Below are positions 3,151-43,389 of a stretch of DNA of 64,000 nt, piece by piece (positions within the stretch are counted from its first letter, which is position 1; each line of letters begins with the position of its first letter). The DNA is taken from contig SCUJ01000006.1 of the NCBI GenBank assembly GCA_004297165.1, forward strand, positions 434,001-498,000, in the 5' to 3' direction. Below the pieces are notes generated by a model. That model did no database searches. It had not been told where the DNA came from and saw only the letters and a program-made list of their open reading frames with translations. Source of the stretch: Gammaproteobacteria bacterium. GTDB taxonomy: Bacteria; Pseudomonadota; Gammaproteobacteria; Eutrophobiales; Eutrophobiaceae. A program made the translations under genes and the position numbers.

Positions 3151-5310
3151 ATGAGCAAACGAGAACACCGCAAGCGATCAGCACCCGAGTACGAACACCA
3201 TATCCCCGAGCGTCGGGAGGTATTGGAATTCCTCCGGACGGTCAACAAGCCGCGTAACTTGAAGCATATCGCCGCGGCGCTCGGGGTCGATTCTCCCGCC
3301 CGGCAGGCCGCGCTGAAAAAACGTCTTAATGCCATGGTGCGCGATGGCGAGATCATAAAAAACCGCAAGGAAGGCTTCGGACTTACCGAGAAAATGGATC
3401 TCATTGTGGGCGAGGTCATAGGGCATACCGATGGCTATGGTTTCCTCCGTCCTGACCATGGACCGCCCGATCTTTTTCTATCCGCGCGCGAGATGCAAGT
3501 TCTGATGCATGGCGATCGGGTGGCGGTAAGGATCAGCGGGATCGGGCGCAGGAATCAGCCTGAAGGCGCCGTGGTGGAGATCCTGGAGCGCGCGAACCGC
3601 AAGGTGGTGGGTCGTTATTTCCGGGAAGGTCAGCTTGGTTTTGTTGCGCCTGACAACAAACGCCTGCATCAGGATGTCCTCATCCCGGCGGGTGACGAGG
3701 GCAAGGCAAAATCCGGACAGTATGTGGTGGCGGATATCACCAGATACCCGGATCGACACACTCAACCCGTAGGCAAGATCACCGAAATACTTCGGCAGGA
3801 CACCTATGTCGAGATGGCGACCGAGATCGCCATCAGGGCGCACGACATACCTTGGGAATGGCCCGAGGAGATCGAACGCGAACTGGCGGCGATTGGCTCG
3901 AAAAAGATTGGCGCCAAAGACCGAAACGATCTGCGTGAGTTGCCTTTCGTAACCATCGATGGCGAAGACGCCAGGGATTTTGACGATGCCGTATGTTGCG
4001 CGAAAACGGCTATCGGCTGGAAGTTGTATGTCGCCATCGCCGATGTTTCCGCTTATGTGCCTGTTGGCGGCGCGCTCGACCGTGAAGCTACGAACCGCGG
4101 GACCTCCGTGTATTTTCCGCAGCGGGTCGTGCCGATGTTGCCGGAATTGCTGTCCAACGATCTCTGTTCCCTCAAACCGGAAGTGGACCGACCCTGTCTG
4201 GTCTGCGAGATATCGATCGACAGACGCGGCATGGTCAAGGAGTCGCGCTTTACGCGGGCCTTGATCCATTCCCGTCGCCGAATGACCTACACGGAGATGG
4301 CGGCAGCCGTAGTGGCTAAGGATGCCGGCCTGCGTCAGGCGTTGGGGCCGCTTATCGAACATCTGGATAAGTTATATCAACTGTTCCGTTTGCTGCATGG
4401 CGCGCGGATGAAACGCGGCATCCTGGAATTCGGCGCGACCGAGACCCGCATGGAGTTCGATAATAAAGGACGCATCCGGCAGATCAGTCCATTGATCCGC
4501 AATGATGCCCATCGCTTGATTGAAGAATTCATGTTGACCGCCAATGTCGCCGCCGCCGAACTACTCGAAAAACAGGAACTGCCGTCCCTGTATCGCAATC
4601 ATGAACCGCCAAATCCGGAAAAATTGGCGGATCTGCGGGAATTTCTGGCCGGATTCGGCTTGGAACTCGGGGGCGGTGATAAACCCGACGTAGAAGATTA
4701 CAAGAAGGTGCTTGAGGCCGTCAGCGACAAAGGCCATGCCCATCTGGTGGAGACCGTGTTATTGCGCAGCATGAATCTGGCTGTTTATGAGGCCGTAAAC
4801 AAAGGGCATTTTGGTCTGGCCTTCGCCCGCTATACTCATTTCACCTCGCCCATCAGGCGCTATCCGGATCTGCTGGTGCACCGCGCCATCAGTCATGCGA
4901 TCAAGGGGACTCCTTATCATTACTCGCTGCCCGATATGCACAACCTGGGGGCGCACTGTTCCCGGACGGAACGGCGCGCGGATGACGCCACCCGGGACGT
5001 GGCGCAGCACCTCAAATGCGAATTCATGGAGGATCGTATTGGCGAGGTTTTTAACGGCACGGTCAGCGGGGTAACCGCCTTCGGCCTGTTCGTGGAACTG
5101 GATGATGTGCTGGTGGAGGGCCTGGTGCATGTCACCGCGTTGCCCAACGATTATTATCATTTCGATGCGACTACCCGTAGTCTGCGGGGCGAACGCAGCG
5201 GCCACAGGTTTCATCTCGCGGATCGTGTCCGGGTATCGGTAAGCCGGGTGGATATTGACGAGAAAAAGATCGATCTCGAACTCGTCGACGGGCGGAAATC
5301 CCGTAAATAG
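3151..5310 (+). CDS. rnr: Ribonuclease R
   Basis: A 719-residue 3'-5' processive exoribonuclease of the RNase II/R family, which degrades structured RNA, rRNA fragments and mRNA. The N terminus is a winged-helix-like domain (about residues 20-90). Two cold-shock domains follow, then the RNB catalytic domain with IDGEDARDFDDA near residue 268; its Asp cluster binds the catalytic metal. The HFTSPIRRYPDL motif follows, and a C-terminal S1 domain containing VTAFGLFVEL closes the protein. The E. coli enzyme is longer because of a Lys-rich tail, which is almost absent here (the protein ends KSRK). rlmB follows after 40 bases, the usual rnr-rlmB pair. Confidence 0.96.
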   Translation: MSKREHRKRSAPEYEHHIPERREVLEFLRTVNKPRNLKHIAAALGVDSPARQAALKKRLNAMVRDGEIIKNRKEGFGLTEKMDLIVGEVIGHTDGYGFLRPDHGPPDLFLSAREMQVLMHGDRVAVRISGIGRRNQPEGAVVEILERANRKVVGRYFREGQLGFVAPDNKRLHQDVLIPAGDEGKAKSGQYVVADITRYPDRHTQPVGKITEILRQDTYVEMATEIAIRAHDIPWEWPEEIERELAAIGSKKIGAKDRNDLRELPFVTIDGEDARDFDDAVCCAKTAIGWKLYVAIADVSAYVPVGGALDREATNRGTSVYFPQRVVPMLPELLSNDLCSLKPEVDRPCLVCEISIDRRGMVKESRFTRALIHSRRRMTYTEMAAAVVAKDAGLRQALGPLIEHLDKLYQLFRLLHGARMKRGILEFGATETRMEFDNKGRIRQISPLIRNDAHRLIEEFMLTANVAAAELLEKQELPSLYRNHEPPNPEKLADLREFLAGFGLELGGGDKPDVEDYKKVLEAVSDKGHAHLVETVLLRSMNLAVYEAVNKGHFGLAFARYTHFTSPIRRYPDLLVHRAISHAIKGTPYHYSLPDMHNLGAHCSRTERRADDATRDVAQHLKCEFMEDRIGEVFNGTVSGVTAFGLFVELDDVLVEGLVHVTALPNDYYHFDATTRSLRGERSGHRFHLADRVRVSVSRVDIDEKKIDLELVDGRKSRK

Positions 5311-5350
5311 TTGCAACTGTCATGACCATCGGGAATTCAGGAGACTGTGG

Positions 5351-6118
5351 GTGATACAGCAGAGTGCTTCTTCTGGCGAAGTGATCTTCGGTATCCATGC
5401 TGTACGCCACGCCCTCTTGAAGGCCCCGGAAGATTGCCGGGAACTGTGGATCCACGAGGGACGCATGAAAGGCCCTGGGTTCGCGGAGATTATGCAACTG
5501 GCCACGCGGGCGGGGCTAAGGATCAGCCGTATTCCGGTCGAGCGGCTGGATCGCATGAGCCAGGGCGCGGTCCATCAGGGCGTGATCCTGGAGCGAAGGT
5601 CATCTGCACGCCCGCCCACGGATCTGGAGACCATCCTGGGAACGCAAGCCCCTCCCACGACCCTGTTACTGATCCTGGACGGCGTTCAGGATCCGCAAAA
5701 CCTCGGCGCCTGTCTGCGCACGGCGAATGCGGTCGGCGCGGTTGCCGTGATTACGCCGAAACACGAAACGGCGAGGCTGACTGACACTGTTCGCAAGGTG
5801 GCCTGTGGAGCGGCCGAATCGACCCCCGTCATCACGGTGACCAATCTTGCGCGTTGCCTGGAAGGGTTGAAACAGAAAGGCGTCTGGATTATCGGCACAG
5901 ATGCCGTTGCGGGGCAGAGCCTCTACGATGCGGATCTCACGGTACCGCTGGCCATAGTGCTGGGCAGCGAAGGCTCGGGATTGCGGCAGAATACGAAACA
6001 ACATTGCGATTCCCTGATCCGCTTGCCCATGTTTGGCGCCGTGGAAAGCCTCAATGTCTCGGTTACGGCCGGAGTGTGTTTATACGAGGTAGTCCGGCAA
6101 CGCAGCAGGACTTACTGA
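5351..6118 (+). CDS. rlmB: 23S rRNA (guanosine-2251-2'-O)-methyltransferase RlmB
   Basis: A SpoU/TrmH-family (SPOUT) methyltransferase that 2'-O-methylates G2251 in the P loop of 23S rRNA, using S-adenosylmethionine. The N-terminal substrate-binding domain opens IFGIHAVRHAL. The catalytic half has LDGVQDPQNLGACLRTA (motif 1), VLGSEGSGLR (motif 2) and the C-terminal SLNVSVTAGVCLYE (motif 3) with the knot. I chose GTG 5351 (255 residues) because AGGAG (5339-5343) lies 7 bases upstream and the length matches the family; an in-frame start at 5255 would lie inside rnr. It follows rnr and precedes the S6 operon promoter. Confidence 0.93.
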   Translation: MIQQSASSGEVIFGIHAVRHALLKAPEDCRELWIHEGRMKGPGFAEIMQLATRAGLRISRIPVERLDRMSQGAVHQGVILERRSSARPPTDLETILGTQAPPTTLLLILDGVQDPQNLGACLRTANAVGAVAVITPKHETARLTDTVRKVACGAAESTPVITVTNLARCLEGLKQKGVWIIGTDAVAGQSLYDADLTVPLAIVLGSEGSGLRQNTKQHCDSLIRLPMFGAVESLNVSVTAGVCLYEVVRQRSRTY

Positions 6119-6135
6119 CAACAGGTATGACTGAT

Positions 6136-6164
6136 TTGCAAATGACCAACCGATACTCTAGAAT
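6136..6164 (+). promoter_or_regulatory. Sigma-70 promoter of the rpsF operon
   Basis: TTGCAA (6136-6141), a 17-base spacer and TAGAAT (6159-6164) lie just after the rlmB stop. The predicted start near 6171 gives a leader of about 60 bases that contains the hairpin at 6185-6209. This is a sequence match only. Confidence 0.65.
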
Positions 6165-6184
6165 CTGCGCCCTTCATATTCCTT

Positions 6185-38513: not shown

Positions 38514-39869
38514 TTAATTCAGCCATTGATTCACCCTGGCAAGGTCCTCCGAGGAGATGATGCCGGCGGCGCGCTTGAGACGTAATGTGTCCAGAAGATA
38601 GTCATAGCGTGCGCGGGCATATTCTCTTCGCGCCTGGGAGGTGGCTCGTTGCGCGGTAACGACGTCCACGGCTGTACGGGTGCCTACCTCGAAACCTGCT
38701 TCGGTCGCTTCCAAGGCGGTTTCGGCAGAGACCAACGCCTGCTTGAATGCCTCCACTTCACTGATCCCTGAGATGATGCCGAGATAGGCTTGACGGGTCT
38801 GGCTTTGGGCGGTGCGGTGCGCCTGCTCGAGACGTTGCATCTGTTCTTCCAAGCGTTGTACTGATTCCCGTGTGCGCGCAGTGACAAAGCCACCTTGATA
38901 GATAGGAACGTTCAACTGCACGCTTATGGTATTGGAATGCGATTTACTGGAACCGAAACTACCACCATCGCTCCGGCTGTAGCCGGCGCTCCCATCCAGA
39001 TTCAGGGTCGGGAGATGTGCAGAACGTTGAATGCTGATCTCATCGCGGGCGTTCTCAACGGCGTAGCGGCTGGCGACGACTTCCAGGCTTTGCTCCAGAG
39101 CTGTGTTGGTCCAATCGTCAATATTCTCCGGCTCAGGTCTGAGTAATGGCAATTCCTGGGCCAATTTCTTGAATTCGAAGATATACTCTCCAATGATCTC
39201 ACGTAGGGCCTCGCGGGCATTATCTACGCCATTTGTGGCGCCAATCTCCGCGGCGACGGCGCGATCATATCCCGCTTGTTGCTCCTGGACGTCAGTGATG
39301 GCAGTCAGGCCGACCTCGAAGCGTTGTTTGGCTTGTTCCAGTTGGCGACTGAGAGCGAGTTTATCGGCTTGGGCGAATTCGAGATTATCCACCGCGGCCA
39401 GCATGCCGAAATAGGCCTCAGCCACACGGACGACCAAACTCTGCTGCATGCCAAGCAGTTCGGAATCGGATTGCGCGATTATGTTGTCAGTTTGACGAAA
39501 ATCCAGGTACAGATCCCAGCGAAACAGGGGCTGGCTCAGGTTGAGAGAATAGTTATGACTATCAGAGACAAACACGGAACTTGTCAACCCGACGATTGTA
39601 CTCGACCGGCTGATATCGTCCTCAGATCGACTGGCACCAGCGCTTAGGCTGAGGGTGGGCAACATCCGCGACAGGGCCATCGGCCGTTGCTGGTGTATGG
39701 CCAGATTTGCGGCAATGGCCTGCTTATATTGGGGGTCATGTTGTTCAGCCAGGGTATAAATCTCCAGCAAATCCGCAGCAGCAACAGGCATTGTCAAGGC
39801 CGCAAGCAGAGGCAAGCAGGCGAAGCGACAGTATTTGGCATACGAGGTTTTTCTTTGATGTTGTTTCAT
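38514..39869 (-). CDS. tolC: TolC family outer membrane efflux protein
   Basis: 451 residues. An N-terminal signal peptide (CLPLLAALTMPVAAA) is followed by the mature start DLLEIYTLAEQHDPQYKQAIAAN, characteristic of TolC. Two OEP repeats follow, rich in Gln, Ala and Leu coiled coil, with SLSAGASRSEDD and the second LNVPIYQGGFVTARTRESVQ. It forms the outer membrane end of type I secretion or multidrug efflux. The inner membrane and adaptor parts are not in the window. It follows the PCMT-like gene by 42 bases. Confidence 0.93.
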   Translation of the reverse strand: MKQHQRKTSYAKYCRFACLPLLAALTMPVAAADLLEIYTLAEQHDPQYKQAIAANLAIHQQRPMALSRMLPTLSLSAGASRSEDDISRSSTIVGLTSSVFVSDSHNYSLNLSQPLFRWDLYLDFRQTDNIIAQSDSELLGMQQSLVVRVAEAYFGMLAAVDNLEFAQADKLALSRQLEQAKQRFEVGLTAITDVQEQQAGYDRAVAAEIGATNGVDNAREALREIIGEYIFEFKKLAQELPLLRPEPENIDDWTNTALEQSLEVVASRYAVENARDEISIQRSAHLPTLNLDGSAGYSRSDGGSFGSSKSHSNTISVQLNVPIYQGGFVTARTRESVQRLEEQMQRLEQAHRTAQSQTRQAYLGIISGISEVEAFKQALVSAETALEATEAGFEVGTRTAVDVVTAQRATSQARREYARARYDYLLDTLRLKRAAGIISSEDLARVNQWLN

Positions 39870-39911: not shown

Positions 39912-40565
39912 TCAGAAATTAAACGTTGGTTGTCGAATTGCCCCGATCAATGGGGGCAGATCGGTTTCGAATAAATCCTCATGAGACCATTCTTCCTCTC
40001 CCAGTCGTCTGATGAGTTTAACTTGCATTGCCGGCGATGTACCGATGATCATAAATAATCTGCCACCGGTTTTTAATTGTAACTGGAAGGCATCGTTTAG
40101 CACTGGCATCGAACCAGTTATCGCGATAACGTCATAAGGGGCATGTACCGCCCAACCGTTGATGGCGTCACCTGTGTGCAAGACCACGTTGTGCAAATTG
40201 TAGAGTTTCAGAGCTGTCGCGGCCATCGCCGTAAATTCAGGATAGATATCGACGCTGTGCACGACTCCCCCAAGTTTCGCCAACAGGGCGGTCAGATAAC
40301 CACAACCAGTGCCAATTTCCAGGATCTGGTCATTCCCTTGTATCGCCAGACTTTGCAATAAACGGGCTTCGATTTTCGGCGCCATGGTGACCTGGCCATG
40401 GAGTAGTGGGATGTTGATGTCCGCCAAGGCCAGATTCCGGTAGGGGGCCGGGATGAAATCCTCGCGATGGATCTCGGTCACCAAGTCCAGAGTCTGCGCG
40501 TCACACACATGCCAAGGCCGAAACTGTTGTTTGATCATATTGTAACGCGCTTGCTCGAAATTCAT
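39912..40565 (-). CDS. Protein-L-isoaspartate O-methyltransferase-like protein
   Basis: 217 residues of the PCMT family. It begins MNFEQARYNMIKQQFRPWHV, then IPAPYRNLALADINIPL, and has the SAM-binding motif ILEIGTGCGYLTALLA near residue 82, followed by VHSVDIYPE. The active-site loop is QVTMAPKIEARLLQ rather than the QTISQP of the true Pcm at 54021, so its methyl acceptor may differ. A PCMT-like gene just upstream of tolC is common in gammaproteobacteria. It diverges from glnE across 199 bases that carry no recognised gene. Confidence 0.85.
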   Translation of the reverse strand: MNFEQARYNMIKQQFRPWHVCDAQTLDLVTEIHREDFIPAPYRNLALADINIPLLHGQVTMAPKIEARLLQSLAIQGNDQILEIGTGCGYLTALLAKLGGVVHSVDIYPEFTAMAATALKLYNLHNVVLHTGDAINGWAVHAPYDVIAITGSMPVLNDAFQLQLKTGGRLFMIIGTSPAMQVKLIRRLGEEEWSHEDLFETDLPPLIGAIRQPTFNF

Positions 40566-40764
40566 TTTAATATCCTTGATAGATGCACATTCTTATCATA
40601 AATGTTTACAGTAGTTGTTGAGCCGCGACCATTATATATCGGTTCATATCCGCCTGGGATTATATCCTGACATTCGCATTCCTCGGTGACAGCAACTTAC
40701 CCAATCCTGTATTCTTTATGCCTTCGATTGTGCCAAATTTTCATCTACGAGTTGATCTCAAAAC

Positions 40765-42075
40765 GTGGTAAGCAACCTCGATAGCCTGATAGAGGCATCC
40801 CCCGATCCCCAGACCACAGCGTTCAGGTTTGAACGTCTGTCCGAAGATCGGGAGATCATGAATAGTATCGTGAGACTTCCTCAGGAATTACTTGCCAGTT
40901 TCATTAAAATTATCAGTATCTCGAAGTTCTTGTTCCACTTTATCTGCCGCCATCCGGATGCCATCGATCAGTTGGGAGTCCGGTACGTGGGCGATGGAAA
41001 TTCGCTGGCAAAGATTGTCAGTCTGGACGAGTTGAGAATACACAAGTATTACGAACTATTCAAAATCACCTGGATGGATCTCGCCGGGGCCTGTAAATAC
41101 CAGGAAATTCTGCACGCACTTAGCGATTTGGCTGTAACAATTACGCAAAAGACCCTGGAACTTTGTACCAGAATGGAACATCGTGAAATCGTCACCAAGT
41201 CGATGACAGTGATGGCATTGGGTAAACTCGGCGCTTGTGAGCTGAATTACAGCTCCGATATCGACTTGATCTTCGTGACGGTCAACCCGGAAGATTCCCC
41301 GGATGATTACCAAGTCTTGCAGGGTTTGCTTATTGATGCCCTGCGATCCATGAATCGGGCCCTGGAGCAAAAGACCGCGGAAGGCTTTTTATATCGCGTC
41401 GATATGAAGCTCAGACCTTGGGGGCGCAGCGGTCCCCTGGTAATGGCTATTGACGACACGGAGAATTATTACGCGGCCAGTTCCGAGCCCTGGGAGCGCT
41501 TTGCCTGGCTGCGCGCCCGCCCCATAGCCGGGTCCGTAGATCTTGCCGCGGATTTATTGACCCGTCTGCATCCTTTCGTATTCAAACGATCCCTGGGCAG
41601 TGATGACCTGCAACATTTTGTGGAGATAAAGGACAACATGAGCAAGGCGCGGCGCCGACAGGGACATTGGAACGTGAAGGTCGGCAGGGGCGGAATCAGG
41701 GACGTAGAATTCTTTATTCAAATCCTGCAACTCGTCAATGCGGGCAGGCATGCGGTTTTGCAAACCACCAGCACCTTGACTGCCTTGTTGGGACTGCGCG
41801 CCTGCGGTCTGATCAGCGTCGAGGAGGAACATGAGCTGCACGAGAGTTACATATTCTTGCGCCGATTGGAAAACCGCTTGCAGATGTTTGAGGAAAACCA
41901 GACCCATGACCTACCGGATGAACGGAACCGGCGTCTGATATTGGCCCGATCGCTCACACGCAGCGCCACGAACATGGATAACGACCAAATTTTAAATGAG
42001 TTTGAAGAAGAATTAATCGCGCACCAGTCCATCGCCGCCAAATATTTCGAACGGGTACTCCCCGCGAAAGATTGA
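40765..42075 (+). CDS. glnE: GlnE adenylyl-removing half (split by an in-frame TGA)
   Basis: 436 residues matching the N-terminal half of GlnE, the enzyme that adenylylates and de-adenylylates glutamine synthetase. The nucleotidyltransferase signature is MALGKLGACELNYSSDIDLIF with Asp165/Asp167. Then come RVDMKLRPWGRSGPLV, LHPFVFKR, GRGGIRDVEFFIQI and ENRLQMFEENQTHDLP. It starts at GTG 40765, with an upstream stop at 40753 ruling out a longer form. The frame is closed by TGA 42073-42075; after one TTT codon the second half starts at ATG 42079 in the same frame. Joined, the two give about 874 residues, near a whole GlnE. It may be a true fission, a nonsense mutation or a sequencing error. Confidence 0.88.
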   Translation: MVSNLDSLIEASPDPQTTAFRFERLSEDREIMNSIVRLPQELLASFIKIISISKFLFHFICRHPDAIDQLGVRYVGDGNSLAKIVSLDELRIHKYYELFKITWMDLAGACKYQEILHALSDLAVTITQKTLELCTRMEHREIVTKSMTVMALGKLGACELNYSSDIDLIFVTVNPEDSPDDYQVLQGLLIDALRSMNRALEQKTAEGFLYRVDMKLRPWGRSGPLVMAIDDTENYYAASSEPWERFAWLRARPIAGSVDLAADLLTRLHPFVFKRSLGSDDLQHFVEIKDNMSKARRRQGHWNVKVGRGGIRDVEFFIQILQLVNAGRHAVLQTTSTLTALLGLRACGLISVEEEHELHESYIFLRRLENRLQMFEENQTHDLPDERNRRLILARSLTRSATNMDNDQILNEFEEELIAHQSIAAKYFERVLPAKD

Positions 42076-42078
42076 TTT

Positions 42079-43389
42079 ATGAACCAGCCGTTTACCCCAG
42101 AGATGGAACAAGCGATTACCGCAGCCTGGCACCTGGACTCGGCACGGGCCAGCCTCACCCGATGGCTGGAAGTGCGGAGAAAGGAACAATGGGGCGAAAT
42201 TCCCGCCTCCATGTCGTTGCTGGTAAAGCTCTTCGGCGCCAGTTGGTACTTTACCCGATACCTGTTCTTCCGCGGTCCGAAAGGCGCAGAATTGGTCGAT
42301 CACGCACTTGCGGAGAATTTCTCGTCCGATCGTTTGAGGACTCGTCTGGCGCTTGCATTACAGGAACCGGACCCCGAACAAGGATTCGAGCGGTTGCGTC
42401 TGTTGAAGAATGAAATCATGCTGCAAATCCTGCTCGTCCATCTTAATGGCAGGCTGGATCAGGAACAGACGGAGGGACACCTGACCATGCTCGCCGATCT
42501 TACTCTGGAAATGGCTCTCCAAATATCGGGGTTGCATGAGGTCGCCGGTTGTCGTCTGGCCGTGCTTGGCATGGGCCGTATGGCCGGTTATGAAATGACC
42601 TTCGGCTCGGATCTCGATCTCATTTTTTTATTTGAGGCGGAGACGGATGAGATCGTTGCCGCTACCTCGCGCAAGGTCCGATTGTTGCTCAGACATCTCG
42701 CGGTGGCATCCTCAGCCGGCTTGTTGTACGAGGTGGACTTGCGCCTGCGCCCCCATGGTACGGCGGGTGCCTTGCTGACCGCCAACCGGGCATTCCTCGA
42801 ATACCACCGGGCGGAAAAGGAGATCTGGGAACGGCAGATGATGACCCGTTGCCGTTGTGTGTATGACGAACGCCACCTTGGTCGGGACACCCTGGCACTG
42901 GTACTGCCCCATATCTATGCGAGTTATGATGCGGAAGATTTACGTCGGGAAATCGCCGCCATGCGCCAGAGGGTGTTAACTGAAAAAGGAAGTCCGAGAA
43001 ACAAGCTCGATATCAAGCGCGGCAAGGGCGGCATCATGGATATCGATTTTCTAACTCATTACCTCCAACTTAAACATGGCGCCGAGGTGACTGGTCTCAG
43101 GACTTGTAGCACCCGTCATGCCTTGCGGGTATTGGCTGAGTCACGCATGCTTGCGCCGGAAACGGTGGTGACACTCTTGCAGGCCTACGCTTTTCTGAAG
43201 TCGGTCGAATCCTGTGTCCGGATTTTTGACATGAAACCCATCAGTACCATCCCAGCCGATCATCGTGAAAATGTCGCCGCGGCCATGGCCACCGGCTTCG
43301 GCCGGGATACCGAGGCGTTCATGGAGAATTATCTTGCCGTCACCAGGGAAGTCAGAAGCGAATTCGAGATAGTCTTCGCGGAGCGCTAG
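42079..43389 (+). CDS. glnE: GlnE adenylyl-transferring half (split)
   Basis: 436 residues matching the C-terminal half of GlnE. The signature is VLGMGRMAGYEMTFGSDLDLIF with Asp178/Asp180, followed by YEVDLRLRPHGTAGALL, WERQMMTRCR, KLDIKRGKGGIMDIDFLTHY and an ENYLAVTREVRSEFE end. It lies in the same frame as the first half and is separated from it only by TGA TTT, so termination and re-initiation at ATG 42079 is possible. No Shine-Dalgarno sequence of its own is evident. Both catalytic signatures survive, which argues against old decay. It ends 13 bases before the convergent aas gene. Confidence 0.88.
   Translation: MNQPFTPEMEQAITAAWHLDSARASLTRWLEVRRKEQWGEIPASMSLLVKLFGASWYFTRYLFFRGPKGAELVDHALAENFSSDRLRTRLALALQEPDPEQGFERLRLLKNEIMLQILLVHLNGRLDQEQTEGHLTMLADLTLEMALQISGLHEVAGCRLAVLGMGRMAGYEMTFGSDLDLIFLFEAETDEIVAATSRKVRLLLRHLAVASSAGLLYEVDLRLRPHGTAGALLTANRAFLEYHRAEKEIWERQMMTRCRCVYDERHLGRDTLALVLPHIYASYDAEDLRREIAAMRQRVLTEKGSPRNKLDIKRGKGGIMDIDFLTHYLQLKHGAEVTGLRTCSTRHALRVLAESRMLAPETVVTLLQAYAFLKSVESCVRIFDMKPISTIPADHRENVAAAMATGFGRDTEAFMENYLAVTREVRSEFEIVFAER

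What the first reader, a model, noticed from the sequence alone, without database searches (positions are those of the whole stretch)
40765..43389. glnE split into two complete halves by a single in-frame TGA
The two ORFs are in the same frame and are separated only by TGA TTT before an ATG. Each keeps its own nucleotidyltransferase Asp-x-Asp signature, the first like the adenylyl-removing and the second like the adenylyl-transferring half of GlnE. Two separately translated halves would be a real fission. A single nonsense change or base error would instead be recent damage. TGATTTATG also suits termination and re-initiation.
Basis: partly seen in the sequence, partly recalled or inferred. Interest (0 to 1): 0.6.

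Follow-up and report, generated by a model that had tools for sequence, protein, structure and literature searches.

The report
Ancient two-gene split of GlnE
In a little-known group of gammaproteobacteria, the enzyme that puts a chemical 'off' tag on glutamine synthetase and also removes it appears to be encoded by two adjacent genes instead of one, a very old split that has been kept intact and occasionally undone, so nature may run this textbook switch without the link between its two halves.

Summary
In detail: 40765-42075 and 42079-43389 are two 436-aa ORFs in one frame, separated by TGA-TTT before ATG, orthologous to the adenylyl-removing (AR) and adenylyl-transferring (AT) halves of GlnE. 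It is not recent damage. Of 34 genomes of the same family with a GlnE, 25 have it split, 8 have one ORF, 1 is undetermined (Ns). Four genomes of two other families are split too. Stops, spacing and frame at the junction differ between relatives, and the same-genus sibling is in another frame, so the in-frame TGA here is incidental. All 35 aligned clade members, one-ORF ones included, lack a ~52-residue linker that 11 of 11 outgroup proteins have. One fission and three re-fusions (one of them possibly a sequence error) fit the tree; fission alone needs at least ten events. Both halves keep the catalytic Asp residues and are under purifying selection. No other glnE was found in the genome; glnA with the target Tyr, glnD and PII genes are present. 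Best reading: an ancient two-subunit GlnE, probably made by termination-reinitiation. The AT-class glycine is replaced in 34 of 35. New variant of a known enzyme; activity, association and PII control are untested.

The parts
40765..42075 (+). GlnE N-half: adenylyl-removing (AR) orthologue, 436 aa, GTG start, TGA stop
   Evidence: PF03710 E 2.2e-43 and PF08335 E 1.4e-22; phmmer 1V4A E 6e-52; groups with AR halves, SH-aLRT 99; AF2 pLDDT 93.5, VIA-align Z 44.0, rmsd 2.2 over 400 residues to 1V4A
42079..43389 (+). GlnE C-half: adenylyl-transferring (AT) orthologue, 436 aa, ATG start
   Evidence: PF03710 E 1.9e-36 and PF08335 E 1.3e-17; phmmer 3K7D E 8.4e-39 against 2.4e-26 for 1V4A; groups with AT halves, SH-aLRT 99; AF2 pLDDT 93.6, Z 39.5 to 1V4A and 38.0 to 3K7D
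42073..42081 (+). junction: stop TGA, 3-nt spacer TTT, start ATG
   Evidence: sequence; homologous junctions in relatives vary in stop, spacing and frame
41245..41265 (+). AR active-site strand: Asn161 (equivalent of E. coli N169), Asp165, Asp167
   Evidence: Asn in 35 of 35 clade rows and 11 of 11 outgroup rows; both Asp in 35 of 35 and 11 of 11
41401..41403 (+). third AR catalytic-triad Asp (residue 213)
   Evidence: 35 of 35 clade, 11 of 11 outgroup rows
42598..42618 (+). AT active-site strand: Thr174 (position of E. coli G697), Asp178, Asp180
   Evidence: Both Asp 35 of 35; the AT-class Gly in 1 of 35 clade rows against 8 of 11 outgroup rows
42736..42738 (+). third AT catalytic-triad Asp (residue 220)
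   Evidence: 35 of 35 clade, 11 of 11 outgroup rows
39912..40565 (-). divergent neighbour: PCMT-type methyltransferase, conserved context marker
   Evidence: PF01135 E 5.3e-33; a homologue (48% identity or more) in 26 of 36 clade loci, f97 and f140 included; no match in 13 outgroup upstream regions of 4.6-11.5 kb
38514..39869 (-). TolC-like outer membrane efflux protein, conserved context marker
   Evidence: PF02321 E 4.5e-59; homologue in 29 of 36 clade loci; no match in 13 outgroup upstream regions

Best explanation
This is an ancient, functional fission of the bifunctional glutamine synthetase adenylyltransferase/adenylyl-removing enzyme (GlnE) into two adjacent genes. The ancestor of this gammaproteobacterial clade lost about 52 residues of the linker between the two duplicated catalytic halves, and translation there came to stop and restart (shown by comparison of relatives; that loss and fission belong together is inferred). 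The halves are translated separately from one mRNA by termination-reinitiation across closely spaced or overlapping stop and start codons (inferred from spacing), which would keep their amounts linked. ORF 1 removes AMP from GlnA and ORF 2 adds it (inferred from orthology, conserved catalytic Asp residues and the presence of GlnA with the target Tyr). PII, PII-UMP and glutamine would select the direction through non-covalent association of the halves or by acting on each separately (not shown). In two or three lineages the two ORFs have been joined again, which suggests that the halves still work together (inferred).
For: Only this pair matches PF03710 in the own genome. Family tally: 25 split, 8 one-ORF, 1 undetermined of 34 genomes with GlnE; families f97 (3 genomes) and f140 (1) are split too. 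Profile A2 over 369 class genomes: the only matches above 207.5 bits are in G000 (663), G191 (600), G148 (442), G366 (411) and G268 (410), all in open frames of 437-490 aa. Junctions use TGA 14, TAA 8, TAG 2 of 24 and differ in frame. AU test rejects split rows as one clade (p 8e-51); 55 of 68 ingroup rootings give split as the ancestral state, and fission alone needs at least 10 events against 3 changes inside the clade. Linker: 0-4 residues in 35 of 35 clade rows (one-ORF ones included), 49-52 in 11 of 11 outgroup rows. Six catalytic Asp in 35 of 35. dN/dS 0.06-0.21 in 13 of 18 estimates, the other 5 saturated. Confident stand-alone folds for both halves. GlnA with Tyr398, GlnD and three PII proteins with the T-loop Tyr. 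In 33 good family genomes GlnE goes with canonical GlnA: 22 of 22 with GlnE, 4 of 11 without, Fisher p 8e-5. Shared TolC/PCMT context.
Against: No Shine-Dalgarno enrichment at the C-half start against internal ATGs (medians -2.3 and -2.3, p 0.50), so efficient reinitiation is not demonstrated. The AT-class glycine is replaced in 34 of 35 members, so unchanged adenylylation activity is not assured. GlnA keeps Tyr in all 10 examined genomes without GlnE too, so the target site does not discriminate. The GlnE/GlnA association is not corrected for relatedness, and of all 34 GlnE-bearing genomes 5 drafts (G014, G017, G031, G060, G071) show no full canonical GlnA. Trees are 'quick' trees with 12 of 43 inner branches open; the branch to the outgroup is long (1.65) and 13 of 68 rootings do not give split alone as ancestral (10 one-ORF, 3 ambiguous). 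f140 and f97 rows fall among f1 genera (f1 as one clade not rejected, p 0.12). All evidence is sequence; most genomes are drafts of many contigs.
Confidence: 0.8

Rival explanations
1. Recent nonsense mutation, sequencing error or assembly error in this genome.
For: In the window the halves are in one frame, as a point nonsense change would leave them.
Against: 24 other family genomes and 4 genomes of two other families are split independently of this assembly; the same-genus sibling is split in another frame; linker residues are missing; purifying selection on both halves.
Confidence: 0.02
2. The stop is read through or frameshifted by programme, so that a full-length GlnE is also made.
For: The frame is continuous in the window apart from the stop; some lineages encode one ORF.
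Against: All three stop codons and all three frame relations occur at the junction, so a recoding signal shared by the clade is unlikely. TGA is an ordinary stop in this window. Recoding elements were not searched for.
Confidence: 0.03
3. One-ORF GlnE is ancestral in the clade and was split many times independently at one spot, with no re-fusion.
For: 13 of 68 possible ingroup rootings do not give split alone as ancestral state; the 13 outgroup GlnE read here are single-chain.
Against: Needs 10-15 fissions depending on the rooting, against 3 changes inside the clade. Frame +2 in 18 of 24 split rows is not what repeated point nonsense changes would give. One-ORF L064 keeps an ATG where its split relatives start.
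Confidence: 0.07
4. The pair no longer regulates glutamine synthetase; the halves have taken another nucleotidyltransferase task.
For: The clade is strongly diverged (window N-half 31-40%, C-half 26-32% identical to 13 outgroup GlnE; each half below the NCBIfam GlnE cut-off) and the AT-class Gly is gone in 34 of 35.
Against: GlnE is kept together with canonical GlnA (22 of 22 against 4 of 11); GlnA keeps the Tyr; GlnD and PII are present; AR-class Asn and all catalytic Asp are kept.
Confidence: 0.08

Closest known systems
Escherichia coli GlnE (GS adenylyltransferase/adenylyl-removing enzyme; structures 1V4A, 3K7D)
   Same: Orthologous halves in the same order; same architecture per half; all six catalytic Asp; AR-class Asn
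   Different: Two genes instead of one chain; ~52 linker residues missing; AT-class Gly replaced by Thr; 2 x 436 aa against 946 positions of the NCBIfam model
Engineered unidirectional adenylyltransferases (truncated GlnE; passages of PMC9249168 seen)
   Same: An AT half without the AR half, reported there to drive GS adenylylation in a glnE deletion strain
   Different: Those are laboratory truncations; here both halves are natural, adjacent genes kept over long evolution
GlnD (PII uridylyltransferase)
   Same: Shares the PF08335 domain
   Different: The genome has its own GlnD-type match at C13:754356 (897-aa frame); the pair here matches GlnE models far better than GlnD models
Geobacter sulfurreducens glnE with a ~45-codon deletion (passage of PMC2700814 seen)
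   Same: A glnE altered by an internal deletion
   Different: That deletion is in the C-terminal domain and the gene is called possibly inactive there; here the loss is at the inter-half linker and both active sites are kept

Membership tests
GlnE (GS-ATase), classical single-chain enzyme | Two tandem GlnE nucleotidyltransferase halves, each PF03710 + PF08335 | tested here: met
   Each ORF has both domains above cut-off, in AR-AT order
GlnE (GS-ATase), classical single-chain enzyme | One polypeptide carrying both halves joined by a central linker/regulatory region | tested here: not met
   Two ORFs; linker 0-4 residues in 35 of 35 clade rows against 49-52 in 11 of 11 outgroup rows. Hence filed as a two-subunit variant, not as classical GlnE
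GlnE (GS-ATase), classical single-chain enzyme | Score above the NCBIfam equivalog cut-off (NF008292, 487 bits) | tested here: not met
   266.8 and 202.3 bits for the halves scanned apart; a joined sequence was not scanned
GlnE AR half | Catalytic Asp triad and class-specific Asn169 (class rule from PMC4454073) | tested here: met
   35 of 35 clade rows
GlnE AR half | Phylogenetic grouping with AR halves | tested here: met
   18 clade N-halves (of 35 available) + 11 outgroup AR halves on one side, SH-aLRT 99, quick tree
GlnE AT half | Catalytic Asp triad | tested here: met
   35 of 35 clade rows
GlnE AT half | Phylogenetic grouping with AT halves | tested here: met
   18 clade C-halves (of 35 available) + 11 outgroup AT halves on the other side of the same branch, SH-aLRT 99
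GlnE AT half | Class-specific Gly697 ('usually' glycine, PMC4454073) | tested here: not met
   Thr in the window; N 16, T 10, I 6, S 2, G 1 of 35 in the clade; G 8, S 3 of 11 outgroup
GlnE (GS-ATase), function | Target and signal proteins present: GlnA with the adenylylated Tyr, PII and GlnD | tested here: met
   One GlnA with Tyr398; PII with T-loop Tyr; GlnD-type match
GlnE (GS-ATase), function | Adenylylation and deadenylylation of GS under PII/glutamine control | not testable with these tools
   Needs purified proteins

The most novel reading that the evidence does not exclude
A natural, long-lived two-protein form of the GS adenylylation switch in which opposing writer and eraser are separate proteins, so that their coordination, described as intramolecular for E. 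coli (title of Jaggi 1997), must be intermolecular: a reassembling heterodimer, or independent PII control of each. With the AT-class glycine replaced in 34 of 35 members, by Asn (the AR-class residue) in 16, the C-subunit may have a changed or partly dual activity, and the clade could be a natural experiment in dissolving and rebuilding a bifunctional regulator.
Probability: 0.35. Interest if true: 0.7.

Novelty: new variant of a known kind. Interest (0 to 1): 0.5.

Why it matters
GlnE is a textbook case of two opposing activities in one chain with signal transfer between the halves. A clade that has kept the halves apart over large divergence (window halves about 40-59% identical to those of other genera of the family) and re-joined them in two or three lineages makes a direct question testable: is covalent linkage needed for PII- and glutamine-dependent choice of direction? 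It also supplies natural stand-alone AR and AT enzymes, relevant to the uAT constructs used to make ammonia-excreting diazotrophs, and a case of re-fusion after an ancient fission. Annotation pipelines may misread such pairs as a broken glnE.

Tried and rejected
Recent damage or base error: rejected by the family-wide and wider distribution. A second glnE in the genome: none. Shine-Dalgarno signal at the C-half start: tested, no enrichment. GlnA Tyr as a marker of GlnE function: not discriminating, Tyr is also in all 10 examined genomes without GlnE. Horizontal transfer to f97/f140: their rows fall among f1 genera, but f1 as one clade is not rejected (p 0.12), so transfer is not claimed. Other clade members in a wider sample: A2 over 398 phylum genomes found none besides the window's own; the next score is 247.6 bits. 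Whether other independent splits exist outside the clade was not settled: match lists are cut off, and short open frames seen there and (some at contig ends) were not followed up. My first synteny control (19 outgroup loci) had only about 1-3 kb upstream of glnE, too little; it was repeated on 13 outgroup upstream regions of 4.6-11.5 kb, without a match at E 1e-3. Literature: nine searches showed no natural two-gene GlnE in the titles and abstract starts of the rows listed; several lists were cut (25 of 99, 12 of 234, 12 of 44, 10 of 13, 12 of 230) and the library is open-access only, so this is weak. Of papers I saw passages only, except section 8 of PMC4454073, read whole. Jaggi 1997 is not held; only its title was seen, in reference lists. 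The first GlnA extraction script missed most proteins through a bad pattern; redone (stopped by an error after writing the set).
Full report
WHAT IS THERE. The window holds two ORFs, 40765-42075 and 42079-43389, each 436 aa, in one frame and separated by TGA TTT before an ATG. Each carries PF03710 and PF08335. ORF 1 best matches the E. coli AR structure 1V4A (E 6e-52), ORF 2 the AT structure 3K7D (E 8e-39). A quick tree of 58 half-proteins (18 clade members of 35 available and 11 outgroups, two halves each) separates the clade N-halves with AR from the C-halves with AT, SH-aLRT 99. The own genome (3.53 Mb, 13 contigs, 98.95% complete) has no other PF03710 match.

IT IS NOT DAMAGE. Of 53 genomes held for the family (f1, own included), 35 have a PF03710 match; one of these (G059) has a single weak match (1e-10) in an 817-aa frame, which I take for GlnD and do not count. 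I read the junction in the other 34: 24 split with complete halves, G017 split at TAATG with its C-half cut by the contig end, 8 one-ORF (six genomes of genus g16, one of g2, one of g11), and G015 undetermined because of Ns at the junction. Split genes occur in 14 genera. The 24 complete junctions use TGA 14 times, TAA 8, TAG 2; the C frame relative to N is +2 in 18, 0 in 4 and +1 in 2. So the in-frame TGA of the window is one of several states of an old junction.

HOW FAR IT REACHES. Three genomes of family f97 and one of f140, listed as same class but outside the family, are split as well. With a C-half profile (A2), a class sample of 369 genomes gives a clean gap: G000 663 bits, G191 600, G148 442, G366 411, G268 410, all in open frames of 437-490 aa, then 207.5 bits and below. 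A phylum sample of 398 genomes shows no further member; the next score is 247.6 bits. Of 36 clade loci, 26 have a PCMT homologue and 29 a TolC homologue beside glnE, f97 and f140 included; the six with neither (L052, L058, L072, L074, L082, L197) end within about 2.3 kb upstream of glnE. In 13 outgroup upstream regions of 4.6-11.5 kb neither is found.

ONE FISSION, THEN RE-FUSIONS. In a 46-row tree (quick method; 27 split, 8 one-ORF, 11 outgroup rows) one-ORF members fall among split ones in three places (the same count in a first tree). Holding the split rows together is rejected (p-AU 8e-51). Inside the clade three changes suffice under each of 68 rootings; split is the only ancestral state under 55, one-ORF under 10, ambiguous under 3; fission without re-fusion needs 10-15 events. 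All 35 clade rows, the 8 one-ORF ones included, have 0-4 residues where 11 of 11 outgroup rows have 49-52, just after the junction (L086 residues 475-526). The one-ORF gene of G031 (L064) keeps an ATG where its split relatives start and, read by eye, is one base longer there than its split relative L058, in an A/G-rich run. As G031 is a 63% complete draft, this 'fusion' could be a sequence error. The g16 fusion, seen in six genomes, hardly can be.

BOTH HALVES ARE KEPT. The three catalytic Asp of each half are present in 35 of 35 clade rows and 11 of 11 outgroup rows. Pairwise dN/dS is 0.06-0.21 for 13 of 18 half-comparisons (nine pairs), the other five being saturated at synonymous sites; 9 of the 13 dS values exceed 0.9, so these are rough. 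AlphaFold2 gives confident stand-alone folds (mean pLDDT 93.5 and 93.6). ORF 1 aligns to 1V4A with Z 44.0, rmsd 2.2 over 400 residues. ORF 2 aligns to 1V4A (Z 39.5, rmsd 2.8, 413 residues) about as well as to 3K7D (Z 38.0, 4.0, 410): without the linker the AT half has the plan of the AR half. I infer that the pair resembles the two products of the duplication thought to have made GlnE (PMC4454073, passages and section 8).

CONTEXT. The genome has one GlnA with the adenylylatable Tyr (residue 398), a GlnD-type match in an 897-aa frame, and three PII proteins with the T-loop Tyr plus a weaker PII-like match. In 33 family genomes at least 90% complete and at most 5% contaminated, 22 of 22 with GlnE have a canonical GlnA (E at most 1e-110) and 4 of 11 without GlnE do (my tally; Fisher p 8e-5). 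This is not corrected for relatedness; among all 34 GlnE-bearing genomes five drafts show no full canonical GlnA. GlnA keeps the Tyr in 29 of 30 GlnE-bearing genomes examined, the thirtieth locus being cut before the site, and in 10 of 10 without GlnE.

HOW IT PROBABLY WORKS. In the 24 junctions the start lies from 4 nt overlapping to 12 nt beyond the stop, when the start nearest to the stop is taken, which biases the distance downward. That suits termination-reinitiation. SD-like pairing upstream of the C start is no stronger than at 1403 internal ATGs (median -2.3 for both, p 0.50), and weak in the window (-0.9); efficiency is therefore unproven. I infer separate AR and AT proteins made from one message. 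That an AT half can work alone is reported for engineered uATs (passages of PMC9249168). How PII selects direction without the covalent linker is open; the adjacency of the two genes in the 29 split loci read (25 of f1, 4 of f97/f140) and the in-frame re-joining suggest that they still act together.

AN ODDITY. [quoted passage not shown] The clade keeps the Asn in 35 of 35 AR halves, but the AT position is N 16, T 10, I 6, S 2, G 1; outgroup AT halves have G 8, S 3 of 11. Thus ORF 2 is an AT by descent, but whether its activity is that of a standard AT is untested.

NOVELTY. Nine paper searches showed no natural two-gene GlnE in the rows listed, in an open-access library and partly cut lists. 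I rate it a new variant of a known kind: a two-subunit GlnE.

Noticed in passing
family f1 genomes, e.g. G004, G007, G019, G021, G029, G069, G073: Among 11 good family genomes without GlnE, these 7 lack a canonical GlnA too (best Gln-synt_C match E 2e-17 to 7e-92), whereas genomes of genus g18 and G066, G070, G072, G025 keep GlnA without GlnE. Glutamine synthetase and its regulation seem to be lost or exchanged in parts of this family.
   Followed up: partly
L156 (Desulfobacterales bin36), about 5001-6179: A GlnE-like half in a 648-aa open frame with no second half found within the 11-kb locus: possibly a lone half-GlnE outside this clade.
   Followed up: no
L057 2689-4575; window 40566-40764: In L057 a 629-aa ORF, which looks like ThiC by a recalled motif, lies between the PCMT gene and glnE; in the window that gap is about 200 bp and in its sibling L073 about 285 bp.
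   Followed up: no
G000:C13:1748058-1750984 (L098-L100): Three PII-family genes lie within 3 kb of each other in the window's genome, each with the T-loop stretch ELYRGAEY.
   Followed up: no
L196, L197, L199 (families f97, f140): GlnE of these families falls among f1 genera in the quick tree though they are listed outside the family; f1 as one clade is not rejected. Either rooting noise or an old transfer.
   Followed up: partly
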